From the NCBI RefSeq assembly GCF_014701235.1, contig NZ_AP022873.1, forward strand, positions 496,001 through 560,000: 64,000 bases of DNA, in the 5' to 3' direction. Each line of letters opens with the position of its first letter. Position 1 is the first letter of the stretch. The notes under the pieces are model-generated. The model worked only from the letters and a program-made list of their open reading frames with translations. It did no database searches and was not told the origin of the DNA. This stretch comes from Dissulfurispira thermophila (lineage in GTDB: Bacteria > Nitrospirota > Thermodesulfovibrionia > Thermodesulfovibrionales > Dissulfurispiraceae). Below are positions 6,236 to 59,159 of this stretch, piece by piece. Both the position numbers and the translations under genes were made by a program.

Positions 6236-8248
6236 ATGCCAAGAGATATACCGATAGGAAATGGAAGGCTCCTAATTACATTTGATCAGGACTACTGTCT
6301 GAGGGACATATATTTTCCTCATCCAGGCAAAGAGGATCACACAGATGGACATAAATTCAGGTTTGGCATATGGGTGGATGGTTCTTTTGAATGGATTACA
6401 AAGGAGTGGAATTTAAGGCTTGACTATTCCTCTAATACACTTATAACCCATGTGACTGCCCTTAATGAGAGGCTCAGGATAAGCCTTTATTGCAATGACC
6501 TTGTTGATTACAAAGAGGATATTTATATCAAAAAGATAATTATCAAAAATCTCATTGAGAGGGAAAGGAATGTCCGTCTTTTCTTCCATCATGACTTTCA
6601 TATCCTTGAGACACCAACAGGTGATACAGCCTATTACGACCCTGATGAAAGGGCAATAATCCATTACAAGGCAGACAGATATTTCCTTATAAGCGGATTA
6701 AGGGGTGGAAGGCGGGGGATAGATGAGTATGCAACAGGTATAAAGGAGTTTCACGGCCTTGAAGGGACATGGCGCGATGCAGAGGATGGAAGGCTTGAGG
6801 GTGCACCAATATCTCAGGGTTCGGTGGATTCCACTATATCATTCCGGGTTGATCTGCCTCCAGCGGGCGAACATGTCCTTTATTACTGGATATGTGCCGG
6901 TAGAGATTATGCAGATGTAAACCGTCTCAACAGGATGATATCAGGCCACGGGATAGAGTATTTCATAAAAAGGACAGAGAATTACTGGAAGGCATGGGTA
7001 AATAAAGAGGATATTGACCTTTCAGCACTGCCAGAAGATATTGCATCCCTTTTTAAGAGGAGCCTCATGATATTAAGAACAAATATAGATTCAGGTGGTG
7101 CCATCATAGCAGGCAATGATTCAGATGTCCAGCACTTTGCGAGAGACACATACAGTTATATGTGGCCAAGGGATGGAGCCCTCGTTGCCTATGCCCTTGA
7201 CCTCGCAGGCTATCACGGTATAACAAGGAGATTCTTTGAGTTCTGTCACAGGATAATAAAGAGGGGAAAAGAGTCTGTGGGCTATTTCCTTCATAAATAC
7301 AATCCTGATGGCTCCCTTGGAAGTTCATGGCATCCCTGGATAAGAGATGGTGCCAAACAGCTTCCCATACAGGAGGACGGCACAGGGTTAATCCTGTGGT
7401 CATTATGGTATCACTTTGACAGATACAGGGATATTGAGTTTATATCTGAACTTTATGATGACCTCGTGATAAAGTGCGGGGATTTTCTTGCATCTTACAG
7501 GGATTCTGAAACAGGGCTTCCCCTTCCATCCTATGACCTCTGGGAAGAGAAATGGGGTATCCATACCTTTACAGTATCAGCAGTCTATGGAGGACTTAAG
7601 GCAGCAGAGCATTTCTCAGTCTTTTTCAGAGATCAGAAGAGGGCAGGTATATACAGCAAGGCAAGGGAAGAGATAAAATCAGCGATGGAGAGGTATCTTT
7701 ATGATGATAAAGAGAAAAGATTCTTGAAGTCCCTTATACCAGAAAACAGTTCTTACAGGCCTGATATGACAATCGATGCAAGCATCTATGCACCATTTTA
7801 TTTTGGTGTCTTTGAGCCTGATGATGAAAAGGTTATAAACACCATGAATGCGATAAAGGAACATCTCTGGGTAAAGACCGATGTGGGTGGTATCGCAAGA
7901 TATACAGGAGATAGCTATCACAGGGTTACTGAAGATATAAAATCTGTTCCAGGGAATCCATGGTTTATATGCACCCTCTGGCTTGCCCAGTGGTACATAG
8001 CAAAGGCAAAGAACAGGGATGAGCTGAAAGAGGCCATACCGATCCTTGAATGGGTCACATCAAGGGCATTGCCATCAGGTGTGCTTGCTGAGCAGGTTCA
8101 TCCCTTCACAAACCAACCTCTGTCTGTGTCTCCACTCACATGGAGCCATGCTGCCTTTGCTGCAACAGTGCTTGAATACCTCTATAAACTTGAGAAGGTC
8201 TATGTCTGCCCCACATGCGGAATGCCACTGCAGAGGATCAGGGGATAG
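6236..8248 (+). CDS. glycoside hydrolase family 15 glucoamylase-like protein
   Basis: The 670-residue protein has an N-terminal beta-sandwich domain (to about residue 260) and an (alpha/alpha)6 catalytic domain marked by RDTYSYMWPRDGALVAYAL, SYDLWEEKWGIHTFT (putative general acid Glu) and LAEQVHPFTNQP (putative base Glu). These features fit glucoamylases and trehalases acting on alpha-glucans. No signal peptide is visible, so it should act on internal glycogen or trehalose. The tail CPTCGMPL looks like half of a zinc ribbon. Its position inside a cytochrome group is odd for a sugar enzyme. Confidence 0.88.
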   Translation: MPRDIPIGNGRLLITFDQDYCLRDIYFPHPGKEDHTDGHKFRFGIWVDGSFEWITKEWNLRLDYSSNTLITHVTALNERLRISLYCNDLVDYKEDIYIKKIIIKNLIERERNVRLFFHHDFHILETPTGDTAYYDPDERAIIHYKADRYFLISGLRGGRRGIDEYATGIKEFHGLEGTWRDAEDGRLEGAPISQGSVDSTISFRVDLPPAGEHVLYYWICAGRDYADVNRLNRMISGHGIEYFIKRTENYWKAWVNKEDIDLSALPEDIASLFKRSLMILRTNIDSGGAIIAGNDSDVQHFARDTYSYMWPRDGALVAYALDLAGYHGITRRFFEFCHRIIKRGKESVGYFLHKYNPDGSLGSSWHPWIRDGAKQLPIQEDGTGLILWSLWYHFDRYRDIEFISELYDDLVIKCGDFLASYRDSETGLPLPSYDLWEEKWGIHTFTVSAVYGGLKAAEHFSVFFRDQKRAGIYSKAREEIKSAMERYLYDDKEKRFLKSLIPENSSYRPDMTIDASIYAPFYFGVFEPDDEKVINTMNAIKEHLWVKTDVGGIARYTGDSYHRVTEDIKSVPGNPWFICTLWLAQWYIAKAKNRDELKEAIPILEWVTSRALPSGVLAEQVHPFTNQPLSVSPLTWSHAAFAATVLEYLYKLEKVYVCPTCGMPLQRIRG

Positions 8249-8320
8249 AGCATGACTTTGAACAGAGATGTTGTTTTAAATTATTGGACTAATGCCATGT
8301 AAATCAATGGAGGTTAGAAA

Positions 8321-9142
8321 ATGAAGAAAGATTTTCTACTATTTATCCTTGTTTCTATAGTGCTTTTTTCTTGTGCTACTACCTATCAGGGAAAAGAGCA
8401 TACTCATGCAGGTTTTACAAAACACTATGAGGAAAGCCTTTTTAATGTGACAAGAAATAGTCTTTTCAGTGTTGAGGTGGTGATGCCTGAAGGACACCTG
8501 AAGGTAGGCAAAAATAATATTGACCTCATAGTGCATGACAAAAGCGACAGGGATGTTGTTAGGGCTAATATTAGGGTGGATGCCTATATGCCTGATATGG
8601 GCCATGGCATAGATATAGAGCCTGTGATTGTAGAAAAGGGTGGAGGATTGTATCAGGTCAGAGACATTTCTCTTACAATGCCAGGACACTATCAGTTGAT
8701 CGTTACTGTTCAGAGAGGCTCTGAGACAGACAGGGCTGTTTTTGATTTTCCCCAGGTGGGAGAAATGACCATGCACAAACATATATTAATGCCTGAAGGG
8801 ATAGACACATCACGAACAAATACCTCTGAAAAGGGCATTTATAGGATTTCTTATACCCCTGAGATTGACCCTATCAGGATAAATACTATTCACTCATGGA
8901 AGGTTAAAATTCAAAACACCAGTGGTCAGGCGGTAACAGGTGCCACTGTAAGGATAAAGGGCGATATGCCTGAGCATGGCCACGGCTTGCCAACAGAGCC
9001 AGTTGTGGTTGAGGAAACAGAGCCGGGTGTATATATCATTGATGGGTTTAAATTTCACATGCCAGGCTGGTGGGTGGTCAATTTAGAGATAATATCTCCT
9101 TTGGGAACAGATACCGTCCAGTTCCAACTTTACCTGAAATAA
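8321..9142 (+). CDS. lipoprotein with two YtkA/FixH-like domains
   Basis: The 273-residue protein begins with a lipoprotein signal (LVSIVLFSCATT, lipobox cysteine near residue 18). Two tandem beta-domains follow, each with the same pattern: MPDMGHGIDIEPVIVE...LTMPGHYQLIV and MPEHGHGLPTEPVVVE...FHMPGWWVVNL. Such YtkA-like domains often accompany cytochrome or copper genes, and the Met/His-rich turns could bind copper; this is inference. A ribosome site GGAGG precedes the ATG. The next gene starts 14 bases after the stop. Confidence 0.72.
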   Translation: MKKDFLLFILVSIVLFSCATTYQGKEHTHAGFTKHYEESLFNVTRNSLFSVEVVMPEGHLKVGKNNIDLIVHDKSDRDVVRANIRVDAYMPDMGHGIDIEPVIVEKGGGLYQVRDISLTMPGHYQLIVTVQRGSETDRAVFDFPQVGEMTMHKHILMPEGIDTSRTNTSEKGIYRISYTPEIDPIRINTIHSWKVKIQNTSGQAVTGATVRIKGDMPEHGHGLPTEPVVVEETEPGVYIIDGFKFHMPGWWVVNLEIISPLGTDTVQFQLYLK

Positions 9143-9156
9143 AAGGAAGGCACTCA

Positions 9157-10413
9157 ATGAGAAAATACCTTGACATTCTTATCTGGACAGGTATTCTTTG
9201 CCTTATAATTGCTTTAGGCTCTATCGCAGCAGAGCAACCCGTTCACCAGTGGACACCTCAAGAAAAAGAGATACTCAAGAGTCTCTGGATTGATTCACTG
9301 CCTCCTATGCCATCTGATTATTCCAATAAATACGCCGAAGACCTCAAGGCTGTTGCTCTTGGCAGAAAGTTCTTTTTTGACTCAAGGTTCAGCGGAAATA
9401 TGAAGGTCTCATGCGCCACTTGTCATCCAGAAAATATGAACTTTGCAGACAACCTTCCCAGGGCACACGGTATGGGCACAACAAAAAGAAGGACAATGCC
9501 CCTTATAGGTGTAGCCTATTCACCATGGCTCTTCTGGGATGGCAGAAAGGACTCCCTTTGGGCACAGGCACTTGGTCCAATAGAAAGCCCTGTGGAACAC
9601 GGCTTTTCAAGGACACAAGTGGTAGTGGTGATAAAGAAATACTACCAAAAGGAATATGAGAGGGTCTTTGGTCCATTACCCGAGATTGACGAAGACCACC
9701 TCCCCCTGAAGGCAAAGCCTTCACAAGAAGAACCAGTGGCACTGAAGGCATGGGTAAACCTTCCTGAGAAGACCAGAAAGGCTATCAACCAGGTATATGT
9801 GAACTTTGGAAAGGCAATTGGTGCCTTTGTCAGGACCATGATGCCGACCCCTTCAAGGTTTGACCGTTATGTAGAGGCACTGTTAAAGGGTGACATTGAT
9901 AGGGCATCAAGGATACTCACTCCTGAAGAGGTTAATGGATTAAGGCTATTCATTGGCAAAGCCCGTTGTCTAAACTGTCACAATGGTCCCATGTTTACAG
10001 ACTATGACTTTCACAATATTGTTGTTCAACAACCATCTGATCTCCCCATAGATAATGGAAGGGCTGATGGTATAGTACAGGTTCTTACTGATGAGTTTAA
10101 CTGCCTGGGACCATACAGCGATGCCATCCCGAGACAGTGCCGGCATCTGAGGTTTATGAGCACAGATGTGGTGAGATACAAAGGTGCCTTTAAGACCCCC
10201 ACACTAAGGAATGTAGCAGAGAGGGCACCGTATATGCACGCAGGCCAGTTTAGTACACTGCACAAGGTGCTTCACTTTTACAGAGATATGCCCAGAGATG
10301 TGAGGACCCCTGAGCTTGAACATGGCTCACTTACTGATGAGGAATTGAGTTATCTTGAAGCATTTCTCAAGACACTGAGTTCACCACCAAAGGTATATAA
10401 GGAGGGCTTATGA
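9157..10413 (+). CDS. MauG/CcpA-type dihaem cytochrome c peroxidase
   Basis: With ATG at 9157 (ribosome site AAGGAAGG) the product is 418 residues, with a signal peptide near residues 5-25. Two haem-c motifs, CATCH (86-90) and CLNCH (271-275), are spaced as in bacterial dihaem peroxidases. The motif FKTPTLRNVAERAPYMHAGQF near the C-terminus is typical of the family. It should reduce hydrogen peroxide, or carry out a related oxidation, in the periplasm, taking electrons from a small cytochrome such as the one at 5006. The stop overlaps the next start by four bases. Confidence 0.9.
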   Translation: MRKYLDILIWTGILCLIIALGSIAAEQPVHQWTPQEKEILKSLWIDSLPPMPSDYSNKYAEDLKAVALGRKFFFDSRFSGNMKVSCATCHPENMNFADNLPRAHGMGTTKRRTMPLIGVAYSPWLFWDGRKDSLWAQALGPIESPVEHGFSRTQVVVVIKKYYQKEYERVFGPLPEIDEDHLPLKAKPSQEEPVALKAWVNLPEKTRKAINQVYVNFGKAIGAFVRTMMPTPSRFDRYVEALLKGDIDRASRILTPEEVNGLRLFIGKARCLNCHNGPMFTDYDFHNIVVQQPSDLPIDNGRADGIVQVLTDEFNCLGPYSDAIPRQCRHLRFMSTDVVRYKGAFKTPTLRNVAERAPYMHAGQFSTLHKVLHFYRDMPRDVRTPELEHGSLTDEELSYLEAFLKTLSSPPKVYKEGL

Positions 10414-11135
10414 ATATTAAAAATATTAAAGTATTCGAGACAGAGGTTATTGAGATAATAAAAAGGACTTATAATGTAAAAAGTTTTAGATTCATGTTGT
10501 CAGAAGATGTTGACTTTAAGCCTGGTCAGTTTTTCCATGTAACTATAAAAATAGATGGACAGGAGGCATCAAAGCACTTCTCTATCTCAAATTCTCCGAC
10601 AGAGAAGGCTTATCTGGAATTTACAAAGAAAATAACTGATAGTGAATTCTCCCATGCCTTAGACAACCTGAAGATTGGTGATTGGGCAAGGATTAAGATG
10701 CCTTTCGGAAATTTTACTTTTACAGGTGAATATGAAAAGATCGCCTTTCTTATAGGAGGCATAGGCATAACCCCAGTGAGGAGCATATGTAAATTTGTAA
10801 CTGATAAAAGACTTGATACAGATATTATAGTTCTGTATGGGAGTAAAACCGAAAGGGATATAATCTTTCATGAAGATTTTATCCGGATGGAGGCAGAAAA
10901 TAAAAAACTTAGGGTTGTATATACACTGGATGACCCAATAGACAGGGCTTCATGGAAAGGCAGAGTAGGTTTTATTACTTCAGAGATGATAAAAGAAGAG
11001 ATTCCAGATTTTGTAGAGAGAGTTTTTTATACCTGTGGTCCGCCGAAGATGGTGGATTACATAAAAAAGGTTTTACATGAGGAATTGGGTATTGATAAAG
11101 AAAAGATTATATCTGAAAATTTTACAGGATATTGA
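10410..11135 (+). CDS. ferredoxin-NADP reductase-like FAD oxidoreductase
   Basis: The 241-residue protein has an FAD-binding barrel (HFSISNSPTEKAYLEF, residues about 50-65) and an NAD(P)-binding domain (IGGIGITPVRSI near 112-123; FYTCGPPKMV near 206-215). No 2Fe-2S domain is fused, so it resembles stand-alone flavodoxin/ferredoxin reductases. ATGA overlap with the peroxidase gene shows tight coupling and suggests a joint role in redox defence. Confidence 0.85.
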   Translation: MNIKNIKVFETEVIEIIKRTYNVKSFRFMLSEDVDFKPGQFFHVTIKIDGQEASKHFSISNSPTEKAYLEFTKKITDSEFSHALDNLKIGDWARIKMPFGNFTFTGEYEKIAFLIGGIGITPVRSICKFVTDKRLDTDIIVLYGSKTERDIIFHEDFIRMEAENKKLRVVYTLDDPIDRASWKGRVGFITSEMIKEEIPDFVERVFYTCGPPKMVDYIKKVLHEELGIDKEKIISENFTGY

Positions 11136-53890: not shown

Positions 53891-53942
53891 CCCCTGTTTT
53901 GAGTTAAAATAATATCTCTATAAATTCAGAAGGGGAATGAAT

Positions 53943-54824
53943 ATGAATAAAGACAAAAGACTTAAACTTGGACTTCCAAAAGGCAGCCTTCAAGAGGCAA
54001 CACTAAAATTATTTAGAAAGGCTGGTTATTATGTGAGTGTTTCTTCGCGTTCCTATTATCCTGTATTTGACGATGAAGAAATCCACTCCATGCTCATCAG
54101 GGCGCAGGAGATGGCAAGATATGTTGAGGACGGTCATCTTGATTGCGGTCTTACAGGTAAAGACTGGATACTTGAACAGAATGCTGATGTTGTTGAGGTT
54201 GCAGAGCTTATCTACGGCAAGGGAGGTTTCAGTCCTGTTAAATGGGTTATTGCTGTGCCTATGGATTCTAAAATTAAAAGAGTTGAAGACCTTGAGGGGA
54301 AAAGGATTGCTACAGAACTTGTTGGTTTTACAAAAAGGTATCTTAAATCAAAAGGAGTAAAAGCAGAGGTTGATTTTTCATGGGGTGCAACAGAGGTAAA
54401 ACCTCCTCATCTCGCTGATGCCATCGTAGAACTTACAGAAACAGGTGCATCTTTGAGGGCAAACAATCTCAGAATAGTCGAAACCATCATTGAATCAACA
54501 ACGAGATTTATAGCCAATAAAAAGGCATGGCAGGACAAATGGAAAAGACAAAAAATGAAGAATATAGCTATGTTGTTACAAGGTGCACTCACTGCAGAGG
54601 CAAAAGTAGGTCTCAAAATGAATGTGCCTGAGAAGTCATTTAAGAGGGTCTTAAATCTCCTTTCTGCAATGCATTCACCGACTGTATCTCCACTTTCAGA
54701 TACAGGATGGTATGCTGTTGAGGTTATAACAGATGAAAAGATGGTCAGGGATTTAATACCGAAATTGAAAAGCATCGGAGCATCAGGGATTGTGGAATAT
54801 CCTTTGAATAAGGTTATACCCTGA
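53943..54824 (+). CDS. hisG: ATP phosphoribosyltransferase, long form
   Basis: ATG 53943 has AAGGGGA six bases upstream; 53937 is too close. The 293-residue product is HisG-long: [18 protein letters not shown], then [25 protein letters not shown] and a C-terminal ACT-like domain ([17 protein letters not shown]) for histidine feedback. No hisZ is required. It starts histidine synthesis, but no other his genes are in the window. It closes the plus-strand block. Confidence 0.94.
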
Positions 54825-54944: not shown

Positions 54945-55245
54945 CTACATCTTCCCGTATCTATGTATTCCCTTTGCCTTTGCTGCTGCCCAATTTATGT
55001 CCTTATTCTTGTGGCAGTTGAGGCATGCGAAATCCAGTGTCACAAATCCCCTTGCAAATGTGGCTTTCTTGCCTTTCACCTCCTCTTCATAGAACATCTC
55101 AGCCTTAGGATCTGTGTTGATCTTGAAGATATGGGTTTTTACATCACCTTCATATTTGCCTTTATTTGTAGCTGACTTTGTAGCCTTTGGCATATGGCAG
55201 TCTGTGCATGTTACGCCGACAGCCTCCATAACACTTCCCTGGTAT
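54945..55245 (-). pseudogene. 5'-truncated multihaem cytochrome c
   Basis: The frame reads to an upstream TGA near 55247. It encodes YQGSVMEAVGVTCTDCHMPK and then LDFACLNCHKNKDINW: two haem motifs, CTDCH and CLNCH, in the style of nitrite reductase or octahaem families. There is no signal peptide and no proper start; ATG 55229 is internal by comparison with the haem spacing. The IS110 remnant begins just upstream, so the 5' part was probably lost with the insertion. Confidence 0.75.
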
Positions 55246-55277
55246 AATCGTCACCTATAGATTTTAGGTAAGGAAGT

Positions 55278-55752
55278 TTATAATAGTTATTAAAGTCTTT
55301 AAGCAGGAAAGACAGTTTGCTTTCCTCCTTCAAGCCCTAAGGGAACTAACTGTCCTCAGGTATGAGTTCGTCAAGGAGAGAAAGAACCTTCAGAGACAGG
55401 TATATTCCCTTCTGAACGTTGTCTTCCCGGAATATGAGAAGACTGTCATTGCAAAACCGTTCTCTCAGGCATCTATGTGTATTCTTTCTGAATACCCGAC
55501 TGCTAAACATCTCTCAGGGGCTAAACCAAAACATATTGAAAAGATTGTCCGCAGAATTCAGGGCAACAACTTCAACATAGAGGAAATCCAGAAACTCATA
55601 GATACCGCAAGGAACTCCATAAGAAACTATCTCAGGGTAAAACCGAGAAACAGGCCCTCATATGCGTGGGTAAAAAGCTCCTCCAAATCGCACTTAGCAT
55701 GCTTAAATCAGGAGAAACCTATAACCCTGCAAGGGTCTTTGTCTCAAATTAA
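55278..55752 (+). mobile_element. internally deleted IS110-family transposase remnant
   Basis: The frame FKQERQFAFLLQALRELTVL, then RYEFVKERKNLQRQVYSLLN and VVFPEYEKTV resembles the DEDD N-terminal and helical part of IS110-type transposases. It runs through LSEYPTAKHLSGAKPKHIEK. It then jumps frame near GCGTGGG to GKKLLQIALSMLKSGETYNP and ARVFVSN, the normal C-terminal end. Most of the Transposase_20 domain is missing, so it is dead. It fills the gap between two truncated genes. Confidence 0.8.
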
Positions 55753-55777
55753 ATTTTCAAAGAACGATCTTTGACAA

Positions 55778-56287
55778 CTAAAAATGCTCTTTTAGGGTGG
55801 ATTTATAGAAAATCGACTTCACCAAATGCCCTATAATCGATTTTCTTTGCCAAACTATTTGCCTCTTTTTTGCCTTGACACGTTTATAGGATGTCTTGTA
55901 GTCCTTTATAAGGGTTTTCATTTCTGAGAATATCCCCTGCAGAGATGTCAGCCTTTCCTCTATTTTTGCGTAGTACTGCATGCATGCAACATCATTCAGA
56001 TGGCCTGAGTATTGCCTCGACAGAAAGTCCATGTTCTCATCGAATGCCTCTATGTAGCTCACAAGGTCATCGATATTTCTTGAATAACCTGCTTGGTGCC
56101 TGTAGAGTTCAGCCTGTGCACCCTTAATCTGGAAGAGCATCTCGTTGTATTTACCGATTATTATGTCCTGCTCATTTATGAGTCTCTGGTTCATGACAAT
56201 GGTATCAAGATTTTTAATTACCACCATAGCGCCTATGGTGAATATCAACAATACCAGACCGAGTCCTGTTATCAGTTTTTTCTTCAT
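55778..56287 (-). pseudogene. truncated sensor protein with lost haem motif
   Basis: The 169-residue frame has an N-terminal membrane helix (LITGLGLVLLIFTIGAMVVI) and a periplasmic four-helix sensor part, then stops shortly after a coiled region with no kinase domain. The segment ACMQYYAKIEE (Cys102) differs from a CMQCH haem motif by two single-base changes (TAC for TGC, TAC for CAC). The 3' end reaches a 10-base hairpin (AGAAAATCGA/TCGATTTTCT, 55807-55846), next to the IS110 remnant. Its ATG overlaps the PhnD-like stop (ATGA). Confidence 0.65.
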
Positions 56288-57222
56288 CGCCTGTACCTGA
56301 ATGGATATGCCCTTGTATCTATATCGAGATCTCTTGCCATTTCCCTTAAAACATTAAATTCTGAATCTATCGTCTCTTTAAATCTGACCGCATTAAGTGC
56401 CTTCAGTGCATTTTTGCCTTCAGGAGTATTATGCATAGACAACAGGCTTTTTTTTAGGAGGTCTTTTATATTAGTGTTTAGATCTCCCCTTACGCAGAGG
56501 CTGTTTGACGGCACCTCTATGGATCTGGCGAGAATAACTATCTCTTTTTTAAGTGCAGGATTTTCAGAGAGGAGTTTCTCGAATATCAGGTCTTTAGCCG
56601 CACCGATATCTGCCTGTCCCTTAAACACAGACAGTATCGCAGCATCATGGCTCCCTGTAAAGATAATCTTTCTGAAGTGATGTTCAAAGCTTTTGATGCC
56701 GTATTTTTTAAGATACCATCTTGGGAATATATATCCTGCTGTTGTCACCTCATGAACAAGGGCTATTCTCTTGCCTTTCCATGTCCTGACATCTTCTGTC
56801 AATCCTGAATCCTTTCTTGTAAAGATTATCCCCCTGTAATTTGACTTCTCTCCCATCTCTACAGGACGTGCCACAGGTTCTATATCTGCTCTCGCCTTTG
56901 TCAGGACATAATTAAAGCTTCCGAAAAATGCACCATCTATCGTTTTGTTTTTGATCTCGTCATAGATAGAGCCGTAGCTGTCAAGGAGTTTTATCTTTAC
57001 ATTCGTATCGAGTCTCTCTGATAGGTATGCTGCGAGTGGTTTATACCTCTTTTTCTGTTCAAAGACATTCTGCTCAGGAAGGATTGCAATGGTAAGGGTC
57101 TTTTCCCTTATTCTTGGAGGCTCGACTTTTTTTATATCCACTGTTTTATCATCGCAGGAAGTGCCAATAAGGCAGGCAAGCAACAGGATTACAAGGGTAA
57201 TGGTGACTTTTATGAATCCCAT
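56284..57222 (-). CDS. PhnD-like phosphate/phosphonate-type substrate-binding lipoprotein
   Basis: The 312-residue protein has a lipobox (LLLACLIGTSCDD) and a periplasmic binding fold: LTIAILPEQNVFEQKKRYKP, TIDGAFFGSFNYVL and the ARADIEPVARPVEMGEKSNY segment. No ABC permease or ATPase is adjacent. It pairs instead with the sensor fragment downstream (four-base overlap), so it may have been the ligand-binding partner of that sensor. The ligand is unknown. Confidence 0.85.
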   Translation of the reverse strand: MGFIKVTITLVILLLACLIGTSCDDKTVDIKKVEPPRIREKTLTIAILPEQNVFEQKKRYKPLAAYLSERLDTNVKIKLLDSYGSIYDEIKNKTIDGAFFGSFNYVLTKARADIEPVARPVEMGEKSNYRGIIFTRKDSGLTEDVRTWKGKRIALVHEVTTAGYIFPRWYLKKYGIKSFEHHFRKIIFTGSHDAAILSVFKGQADIGAAKDLIFEKLLSENPALKKEIVILARSIEVPSNSLCVRGDLNTNIKDLLKKSLLSMHNTPEGKNALKALNAVRFKETIDSEFNVLREMARDLDIDTRAYPFRYRR

Positions 57223-57247
57223 ATTTTATTATAACAATAACGGAAAG

Positions 57248-57970
57248 ATGGAAGAAGCCTATAATATAAAGCTTCCTGTATTCGAAGGTCCTTTAGACCT
57301 TCTTCTGCACCTCATAAGGGAAAACAGGATAGATATTTATGACATACCTATTGCTGTTATTACAAAGCAATATCTCCAATACATCGAAATAATGAAGGAG
57401 CTTAATCTCGAGATTGCATCAGAATTCCTTGTCATGGCTGCAACCCTTATCTATATTAAATCTCGAATGCTTCTGCCTCCTGATGAAACTATTGAAACTG
57501 AACAACATGAAGACCCCCGTGCTGGCCTTGTGCAAAGGCTTCTTGAATATCAGGCATATAAAGAGGCATCAGGCATATTAAGGGAGAGGGAGGAAATATG
57601 GGCTAATATCTTTTCCAGACCGCCGATAGAGCAAGATGATATCAAAGTTGAGCCTGAGTTGTATTTATTTGATGTAAATATCTTCGACCTCATGAGTGCA
57701 TTGAAGAAAATTATGAGCAAGGTTCCTCCAGAGGCAATAAAGATAACGAGGGAGACCCTGACTGTAAAGGACAGGATTGCGATGATACTGGAAAAAATGG
57801 AAGATGAGCATACAATGAGGTTTGACGCGCTTTTTGAGGAAGACACCACAAGGGTTCAGATAATAGTCACATTCCTTGCACTCCTTGAAATTTTAAGACT
57901 TGGCATTGTAAGGGCATATCAGGACAAAGAGTTCGGGACAATATGGATCATGCGGCATGCTACTACTTAA
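57248..57970 (+). CDS. scpA: segregation and condensation protein A
   Basis: ATG 57248 gives 240 residues starting MEEAYNIKLPVFEGPLDLLL, the ScpA N-terminus. LVMAATLIYIKSRMLLPP and the C-terminal winged-helix part (VTFLALLEILRLGIVRAYQD) follow. ScpA links Smc and ScpB in chromosome condensation. The ribosome site GGAAAG is close to the ATG. The longer frame overlaps the phnD-like gene and is not needed. scpB is not nearby. Confidence 0.93.
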   Translation: MEEAYNIKLPVFEGPLDLLLHLIRENRIDIYDIPIAVITKQYLQYIEIMKELNLEIASEFLVMAATLIYIKSRMLLPPDETIETEQHEDPRAGLVQRLLEYQAYKEASGILREREEIWANIFSRPPIEQDDIKVEPELYLFDVNIFDLMSALKKIMSKVPPEAIKITRETLTVKDRIAMILEKMEDEHTMRFDALFEEDTTRVQIIVTFLALLEILRLGIVRAYQDKEFGTIWIMRHATT

Positions 57971-57998
57971 CTTTGCCCTTCTTATTGTTTAAAAGTTA

Positions 57999-58058
57999 TT
58001 ACAGACTAGCCGGAGCCTTTTTGTGAGGGTTATGGCATTTGACACAATTTCGATTATA
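57999..58058 (-). pseudogene. possible tail of a lost haem-c protein
   Basis: Between gdh and scpA the minus strand reads YNRNCVKCHNPHKKAPASL then stop. CVKCHNPH is a typical haem-c motif. There is a stop just upstream and no gene. It could be the last piece of a deleted cytochrome, or chance. Confidence 0.3.
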
Positions 58059-58064
58059 TCAGAA

Positions 58065-59159
58065 CTATAAAACTTTCTTATATGCCATTGCATTTAAGAC
58101 TCTCTCTTTTGCAAGTTCTTCTGCTGCCTGCCGTGGAAAGATATTCTCTTTAAAGGTCTTTTCAAGGATTAATTTCGTGTTTTTCTTGATGCGATTGGAT
58201 ATGGCTTCAAATGCCTCTTTCTCTGATTTTTTTGCATACTCCATTGCAGCCATTATCACACCGCCGGCATTCGCAATGAAATCAGGCACTGAAAGAATGC
58301 CTTTTTTATACAGTCTTTCTTCTGCCTCTCTTGTTATAGGAATATTTGCACCCTGAAGAATCAATTTTGCTTTTACACCTTCGACATTTTCTTTGCTTAT
58401 TACATCAGCAGTAGCAGCAGGGATCAGGACATCACAGGGTGTCAAGAAAAGTTCCTCACATGTCTTAACCATTCCTTTTTTGTAGTGGATGACGCTTCCC
58501 GTTTCCTCTTTTATACTCAGCAACTCTTTAATATCAAAACCGTCAGGATTACAGATAGTTCCCTTTGTGTCACTTGCTGCAACGATTATCGCTCCCTTTT
58601 CGGAAAGAAATCTTGCAGCAGCCCTGCCAACACTTCCGAATCCCTGTATAGCAACCCTTGCGCCCTTCAACTCTATCCCCGCATAAGGGCATGCTATCTC
58701 TGCACATTCGGAAAGCCCAAAACCTGTTGCGCCTAACTTATCAAGGGGAAGCCCTCCTATCTCTTCAGGGAGCCCTACTGACCTTCCAATCTCATCATAA
58801 ATCCATGCCATGCATTCCTCGTTACTTCCCATGTCAGGGCCTGGGATATATTCATAGAGGTCTTTTATTGCCTGAGAGAATACCCTAAAGTAATGTTCTT
58901 TTTTTGTATCTCTTGGATCAGCTATTATCCCTGCCTTTCCTCCTCCATGTGGAAGCCCTGAAACAGAGTTTTTCAATGTCATCGTTCTGGCAAGCCTCTT
59001 TACCTCTTCAACCGAGACATCACGGGAAACCCTTACACCGCCTATAGATGGACCAAGTGCAGTGTTGTCCACAACAACGATTGCATGAAAATTGGAGACA
59101 GGGAAGAATAACTGGATTACTTTTGAAGGCCCGATTTCCTTGATGACAGATTTGTCCAT
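58065..59159 (-). CDS. Glu/Leu/Phe/Val dehydrogenase
   Basis: The 364-residue protein has the glycine-rich substrate site SGLPHGGGKAGIIADPRD (catalytic Lys), IPGPDMGSNEECMAWI and a Rossmann motif VAIQGFGSVGRAAARFL. The length is nearer leucine dehydrogenase than the roughly 420 residues of glutamate dehydrogenase. Which amino acid it uses is not clear. It catalyses reversible oxidative deamination with NAD(P). Confidence 0.88.
   Translation of the reverse strand: MDKSVIKEIGPSKVIQLFFPVSNFHAIVVVDNTALGPSIGGVRVSRDVSVEEVKRLARTMTLKNSVSGLPHGGGKAGIIADPRDTKKEHYFRVFSQAIKDLYEYIPGPDMGSNEECMAWIYDEIGRSVGLPEEIGGLPLDKLGATGFGLSECAEIACPYAGIELKGARVAIQGFGSVGRAAARFLSEKGAIIVAASDTKGTICNPDGFDIKELLSIKEETGSVIHYKKGMVKTCEELFLTPCDVLIPAATADVISKENVEGVKAKLILQGANIPITREAEERLYKKGILSVPDFIANAGGVIMAAMEYAKKSEKEAFEAISNRIKKNTKLILEKTFKENIFPRQAAEELAKERVLNAMAYKKVL

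What the first reader, a model, noticed from the sequence alone, without database searches (positions are those of the whole stretch)
54945..56287. IS110-family scar with two truncated haem-type genes at its sides
A cytochrome lacking its 5' end and a sensor lacking its kinase part face the dead transposase from both sides. The element probably broke a haem-sensing or cytochrome locus and then lost its own middle. The PhnD-like gene beside it remains intact.
Basis: partly seen in the sequence, partly recalled or inferred. Interest (0 to 1): 0.5.

Follow-up and report, generated by a model that had tools for sequence, protein, structure and literature searches.

The report
IS110 scar in broken sensor–cytochrome operon
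A dead mobile DNA element sits exactly where a bacterium lost the middle of a sensor, regulator and cytochrome gene cluster that its relatives still carry whole; this is an ordinary kind of gene loss, unusually well preserved.

Summary
Relatives carry an intact cluster: PhnD-like binding protein, histidine kinase with one periplasmic CXXCH, sigma-54 response regulator and an eight-CXXCH cytochrome. The window's species keeps the binding protein, the first 131 kinase residues and the last ~112 cytochrome residues (two CXXCH). About 3.6 kb between them, including the whole regulator gene, is gone; the missing kinase and cytochrome parts are not elsewhere in the one-contig genome. In their place lies a 656-bp IS110 remnant (55239-55894). 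Both its ends look intact (they would join as TTGACA-18 bp-TATAAT), but the transposase's catalytic part and most of its C-terminal domain are deleted. The kinase's only two changes at positions invariant in relatives hit the haem motif (CMQCH to CMQYY). Both broken genes carried a similar word at the break. This favours two insertions followed by recombination, but a deletion before a single insertion fits too. An ordinary IS-associated gene loss; low interest. The most novel part is the relatives' NarQ-like kinase with a c-haem motif.

The parts
53937..54824 (+). hisG, intact; in all three congeners searched scpA follows it directly, here the broken cluster does
   Evidence: HisG E 3.8e-47; neighbours compared
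54945..55238 (-). Cytochrome fragment: last ~112 residues of an eight-CXXCH, 370-aa cytochrome; two CXXCH left; 5' part lost (ORF 54945-55229)
55239..55894 (+). IS110 remnant, 656 bp, both termini retained, CT core at each end
   Evidence: left end shared with two other places in the genome that have different left flanks; right end inferred from the core, the flank and the junction promoter
55239..55329 (+). IS left end with -10-like TATAAT (55243-55248); rest of the non-coding left end is deleted
   Evidence: 96-98% identical to L023:3944-4036 and L024:3319-3410
55330..55620 (+). Transposase middle, about residues 127-223; residues 1-126 with the DEDD/RuvC part are missing
   Evidence: 94.9% over 292 bp to L023:4604-4895
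55621..55752 (+). Transposase C-terminal tail in another frame, ends in TAA
   Evidence: NF033542 positions 299-342/343, E 8.5e-5
55753..55894 (+). IS right end with -35-like TTGACA (55875-55880); single copy in the genome
55895..56287 (-). Histidine kinase fragment, residues 1-131; CXXCH lost (CMQYY)
   Evidence: 69-80% identity to four relatives over residues 1-133 or 1-135
56284..57222 (-). PhnD-like substrate-binding protein, intact; first gene of the former cluster
   Evidence: PF12974 E 3e-57; pairwise dN/dS about 0.07-0.09 against congeners
57248..57970 (+). scpA, displaced from hisG; now diverges from phnD (name recalled from the protein's appearance, not from a profile search)
57971..58064 (.). 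Remnant between leuDH and scpA: a phnD-type TATAAT next to leuDH and a short cytochrome-like reading (NCVKCHNPHKKAPAS, - strand)
58065..59159 (-). leuDH-type dehydrogenase, intact (name recalled, not from a profile search); in five relatives the cluster follows it directly

Best explanation
The ancestor carried an intact cluster: PhnD-like binding protein, histidine kinase with a c-haem motif, sigma-54 response regulator and eight-CXXCH cytochrome. An IS110 element with a sequence-specific target inserted at a similar word in both the kinase gene (codon ~131) and the cytochrome gene (codon ~258). Recombination between the two copies removed about 3.6 kb and left one IS copy whose left flank is cytochrome and right flank is kinase. 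That copy then lost most of its left non-coding end, the transposase catalytic part and most of the C-terminal domain, and is dead. The truncated kinase has begun to decay (haem motif lost). Shown: intact locus in relatives, the loss, the IS left end, the internal deletions. Inferred: the exact right end, two insertions and recombination, the order of events, and that the cluster was a sensor controlling cytochrome expression.
For: Intact loci in G002 and G015 and the same cluster in further relatives. Missing kinase part and cytochrome N-part are not elsewhere in the one-contig genome: best kinase match 40%, no second cytochrome orthologue. The IS left end starts with the same bases at three genomic places with different left flanks; the RE-LE junction would read TTGACA-18 bp-TATAAT, as described for IS110 circles (PMC11208160, passages read). 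In G002 the two break sites match at 8 of 9 bases from the core; 329 of 1,740,145 position pairs do as well. A mutation-accumulation study states that all IS-mediated deletions it saw came from recombination between two IS copies (PMC6114881, passages read).
Against: In G015 the two sites match at only 6 of 9 bases, 1.4% of position pairs. The congener sites are only proxies for the lost ancestor. The putative guide-target complementarity of the IS left end is not above chance, and the left end does not fold better than shuffles (z -0.44). No intact copy of this IS was found to fix its right end.
Confidence: 0.62

Rival explanations
1. Deletion first: kinase and cytochrome recombined at their shared short word, making a kinase-cytochrome junction; one IS110 later inserted at the CT of that word. 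The IS did not break the genes.
For: The shared word at the break (8 of 9 in G002) can serve as microhomology; the flanks on both sides of the IS fit one target reading CTTCC-CT-TGTAGTC.
Against: Needs the IS to choose by coincidence exactly the deletion joint. No strain with the deletion alone was seen, but only one genome per species was available.
Confidence: 0.2
2. One IS inserted in one of the two genes, and a one-sided deletion starting at its end, by microhomology or by the recombinase acting on a second target, removed the rest.
For: Gives the same product; IS110 recombinase was assayed for excision between a donor and a target site on one molecule (PMC11208160, passages).
Against: The far endpoint would have to fall exactly on the second gene's copy of the target word.
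Confidence: 0.15
3. The short genes are real functional genes and the IS is incidental.
For: Pairwise dN/dS of both fragments is low (0.05-0.07); the kinase frame is open for 169 aa.
Against: 11 of 11 relatives have the CXXCH, and 10 of 11 have at least part of a kinase domain, the eleventh being cut by its contig end. The fragment's only changes at invariant positions are C105Y and H106Y. The cytochrome fragment lacks the N-terminal two thirds and six of eight CXXCH. Low pairwise dN/dS is what a recent break leaves.
Confidence: 0.03

Closest known systems
IS110 family insertion sequences (RNA-guided recombinases; PMC11208160)
   Same: DEDD and Transposase_20 domains in the sister copy L023; long non-coding left end; RE-LE junction promoter; CT core; tail of NF033542 in the remnant
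   Different: The remnant lacks the catalytic part, most of the Transposase_20 domain and most of the left-end RNA region; no complete copy in this genome
IS-mediated deletions by recombination between two copies (PMC6114881)
   Same: IS at the joint of a multi-gene deletion
   Different: Only one genome of the species was available, so the steps were not observed
PhnD-like sensor kinases TtrS/ThsS (PMC5408782)
   Same: PhnD-like domain with a HisKA/HATPase kinase; the TtrS profile NF040750 also hits the intact kinase, far below its cut-off
   Different: Binding protein and kinase are separate genes here; the kinase has its own helical domain with CXXCH; the regulator is of the sigma-54 type
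c-haem sensor domains DUF3365/Tll0287 (sCache_heme, PMC12889525)
   Same: Extracytoplasmic sensor with one CXXCH
   Different: No PF11845 match of the intact kinase at E<=0.01; the model is all helical, weakly NarQ-like

Membership tests
IS110 family | N-terminal DEDD/RuvC-like domain (PF01548) | tested here: not met
   Deleted in the remnant (only profile positions 121-155, E 0.01); present in sister copy L023, E 6.9e-40. The remnant is a dead derivative, not a functional member.
IS110 family | C-terminal Transposase_20 domain (PF02371) | tested here: not met
   Not found in the remnant, which keeps only the tail after it; present in L023, E 3.9e-22
IS110 family | Circle junction of RE and LE rebuilds a sigma-70 promoter across the core | tested here: met
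   TTGACA-18-TATAAT across CT; read from sequence, no expression data
IS110 family | Left-end bridge RNA with target complementarity | tested here: inconclusive
   L023 left end: no complementarity above shuffles, no extra stability; the remnant keeps only ~91 bp of it
PhnD-like sensor kinase (TtrS type) | Phosphonate-bd domain plus HisKA and HATPase in one protein | tested here: not met
   Separate genes: PF12974 in phnD; HAMP, HisKA, HATPase in the intact kinase
sCache_heme (DUF3365/Tll0287) sensors | Tll0287-like domain with CXXCH | tested here: not met
   CXXCH present in 11 of 11 relatives, but no PF11845 at E<=0.01 and an all-helical model

The most novel reading that the evidence does not exclude
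The locus that was destroyed is a little-described respiratory sensor: a NarQ-like four-helix-bundle histidine kinase that carries a covalently bound c-type haem in a loop of its periplasmic domain, works with a free PhnD-like binding protein, and switches on neighbouring multihaem cytochromes through a sigma-54 regulator. The window's species is a natural knock-out in which the haem motif was lost once the kinase part was gone.
Probability: 0.35. Interest if true: 0.45.

Novelty: new member of a known kind. Interest (0 to 1): 0.2.

Why it matters
It is a clean example of an IS110-associated deletion: the intact locus, the element ends and the missing stretch can all be read by comparison. It also points to an uncharacterised cluster (PhnD-like protein, CXXCH kinase, sigma-54 regulator, multihaem cytochrome) found in relatives, and to a species that does without it.

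Tried and rejected
Bridge-RNA guide in the left end of L023 matching the target halves: complementarity no better than shuffled sites (149 to 264 of 300 shuffles as good); the left end folds no better than shuffles. Rfam found only two tRNAs above threshold near by, nothing in the scar.

Looked for an intact copy of this IS to fix its right end: 1 of 60 relatives and 1 of 395 genomes of the phylum matched at E<=1e-40 and E<=1e-90, in both cases only the own genome. The right-end sequence has one copy in the genome.

Horizontal replacement from an L026-like lineage, because L026 also has scpA divergent from phnD: not supported, since phnD is closest to the congeners (79-81% against 70%).

Decay of the fragments by dN/dS: no signal (ratios 0.05-0.07), so the loss is recent or the fragments are too short to tell; several dS values are saturated. 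Solved structures by sequence: only three kinesin chains at E 0.012, taken as coiled-coil chance hits. Papers: searches for IS110 with multiheme cytochrome, and for PhnD with histidine kinase, multiheme cytochrome and Nitrospirae, showed nothing on this cluster (listings only).

Full report
What is there. The window lies in a one-contig genome of 2.37 Mb; relatives that share the locus are metagenome-assembled Nitrospirae/Thermodesulfovibrionales (record titles). Reading the window from hisG towards leuDH: hisG (+), cytochrome fragment (-), IS110 pieces (+), histidine kinase fragment (-), PhnD-like gene (-), scpA (+), leuDH-type dehydrogenase (-). The names scpA and leuDH are recalled from the look of the proteins, not from a profile search.

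The intact locus. In G002 (same genus, L019) the order is leuDH, phnD-like (306 aa), kinase (538 aa), sigma-54 regulator (449 aa), cytochrome (370 aa), then scpA and hisG on the other strand. G015 has the same order; G009 has it with a different, longer multihaem cytochrome. In nine the kinase aligns to residue 518 or beyond of the 538 of G002; in G001 the frame lacks part of the ATPase region near a contig end, and L027 is cut by the contig end. None of these 11 showed an IS110 transposase match of 60 bits or more in the same comparison. Of 40 relatives searched as whole genomes, 7 (own genome included) have a kinase match and 6 (own included) a cytochrome match at E<=0.001, so the cluster is often absent. 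G003, a congener, has no close phnD (best 31%) and no kinase match; it has an HD-GYP-like gene (my reading of the translation) between leuDH and scpA.

What was lost. The window keeps kinase residues 1-131 and cytochrome residues from about 258 on. On the G002 sequence about 3.6 kb lies between these points (L019 about 7089-10713), with the whole regulator. A search of the own genome with the missing kinase part gives 54 matches, the best 40% identical, that is, other kinases. With the whole cytochrome it gives four, of which only the fragment itself is strong (79%; the next has E 2.9e-4). The regulator was not searched for separately.

The element. The left end starts CTGGTATAATC at 55239. 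The same start occurs near L023:3944 and L024:3319 with different left flanks. L023 carries a 367-aa frame with PF01548 (E 6.9e-40) and PF02371 (E 3.9e-22); its C-terminus runs into a response regulator gene, so it is truncated too. L024 is a left-end piece only. In the remnant the left end stops after about 91 bp and joins transposase codon 127, which removes the DEDD part (D7, E59, D101/D104 by my reading of the L023 protein). After about codon 223 comes the C-terminal tail in another frame. The right end has no second copy in the genome. Its limit at 55894 rests on three points: the next bases CTTGTAGTC continue into the kinase; CT is also the first dinucleotide of the left end; and joining the ends gives TTGACA-18 bp-TATAAT, the promoter across the core that is described for IS110 circles (PMC11208160, passages).

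The break. On the window's + strand the cytochrome of G002 reads CTTCC-CT-TGTAATC and its kinase reads CTTCCTTATAATC at the matching place; the L026 kinase has CTTCCTTGTAGTC. In G002, 8 of 9 bases from the core agree, reached by 329 of 1,740,145 position pairs of the two genes; in G015 only 6 of 9, reached by 1.4% of pairs. An IS with a sequence-specific target could thus have hit both genes and then recombined. The same word could also have served as microhomology. The product is the same, so the order of events stays open.

State of the fragments. The kinase CXXCH is present in 11 of 11 relatives and absent here. Among 45 kinase positions invariant in the other 11 sequences, the window differs at two, C105Y and H106Y; the other sequences, left out in turn, differ at 0 to 5. 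So the number of changes is not unusual, but their place is. dN/dS is low for both fragments and for phnD, so there is no broad decay.

A second rearrangement. hisG lies next to scpA in 18 of the 30 scpA loci returned (40 of 46 genomes had a match); by my count in 18 of 23 loci of the same family, and in all three other members of the genus. In the window the cluster lies between hisG and scpA, and scpA lies between phnD and leuDH. A phnD-type TATAAT remains beside leuDH, and a second one stands before phnD. Between leuDH and scpA there is a short cytochrome-like reading with 17 exact bases in common with the cytochrome of G002 and G015. A tandem duplication of phnD...scpA followed by loss of opposite parts would explain this; the evidence is short sequence only. 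L026 also has scpA divergent from phnD, so the arrangement is not unique.

Function of the lost system (inference). TtrS of Salmonella has a PhnD-like periplasmic domain and likely binds tetrathionate with it (PMC5408782, passages). The model of the kinase's N-terminal part (229 residues of the G002 protein, 12 sequences, mean pLDDT 81.8) is all helical, with the CXXCH in or next to a low-confidence loop. Foldseek's best solved matches are NarQ, a nitrate/nitrite sensor, but weak (E 0.012, TM about 0.4, none at E<=0.001). It is not the c-haem Cache domain of DUF3365 (abstract and one section of PMC12889525 read). A redox or oxyanion sensor that controls the adjacent cytochromes is likely; haem attachment is untested.

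Verdict. It is an ordinary IS-associated loss with unusually clear evidence.

Noticed in passing
57223-58064: The surviving cluster has changed place relative to scpA: hisG and scpA, neighbours in all three congeners, are separated here; a TATAAT and a 15-residue cytochrome-like reading remain between leuDH and scpA. A tandem duplication with opposite losses is one explanation.
   Followed up: partly
L026:6257-8004: Another relative also has scpA divergent from phnD, with an intact kinase, so this arrangement arose more than once or is old; its contig ends before the other side can be seen.
   Followed up: partly
L021:13811-15280: The kinase frame of congener G001 lacks part of the ATPase region shortly before a contig end: a second decaying copy or an assembly fault.
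   Followed up: no
L019:6696-8312: Histidine kinase with a single periplasmic CXXCH conserved in 11 of 11 relatives, outside the known c-haem Cache family; predicted helical bundle, weakly NarQ-like.
   Followed up: partly
L023:3944-5328: Second IS110 copy of the own genome; its transposase C-terminus runs into a response regulator gene that lost its own end, so it too may mark a deletion.
   Followed up: no
L024:3319-3455: Isolated IS110 left end of about 130 bp without transposase.
   Followed up: no
L032:11202-14560: In one relative the regulator is followed by both types of multihaem cytochrome in tandem; others have one or the other.
   Followed up: no
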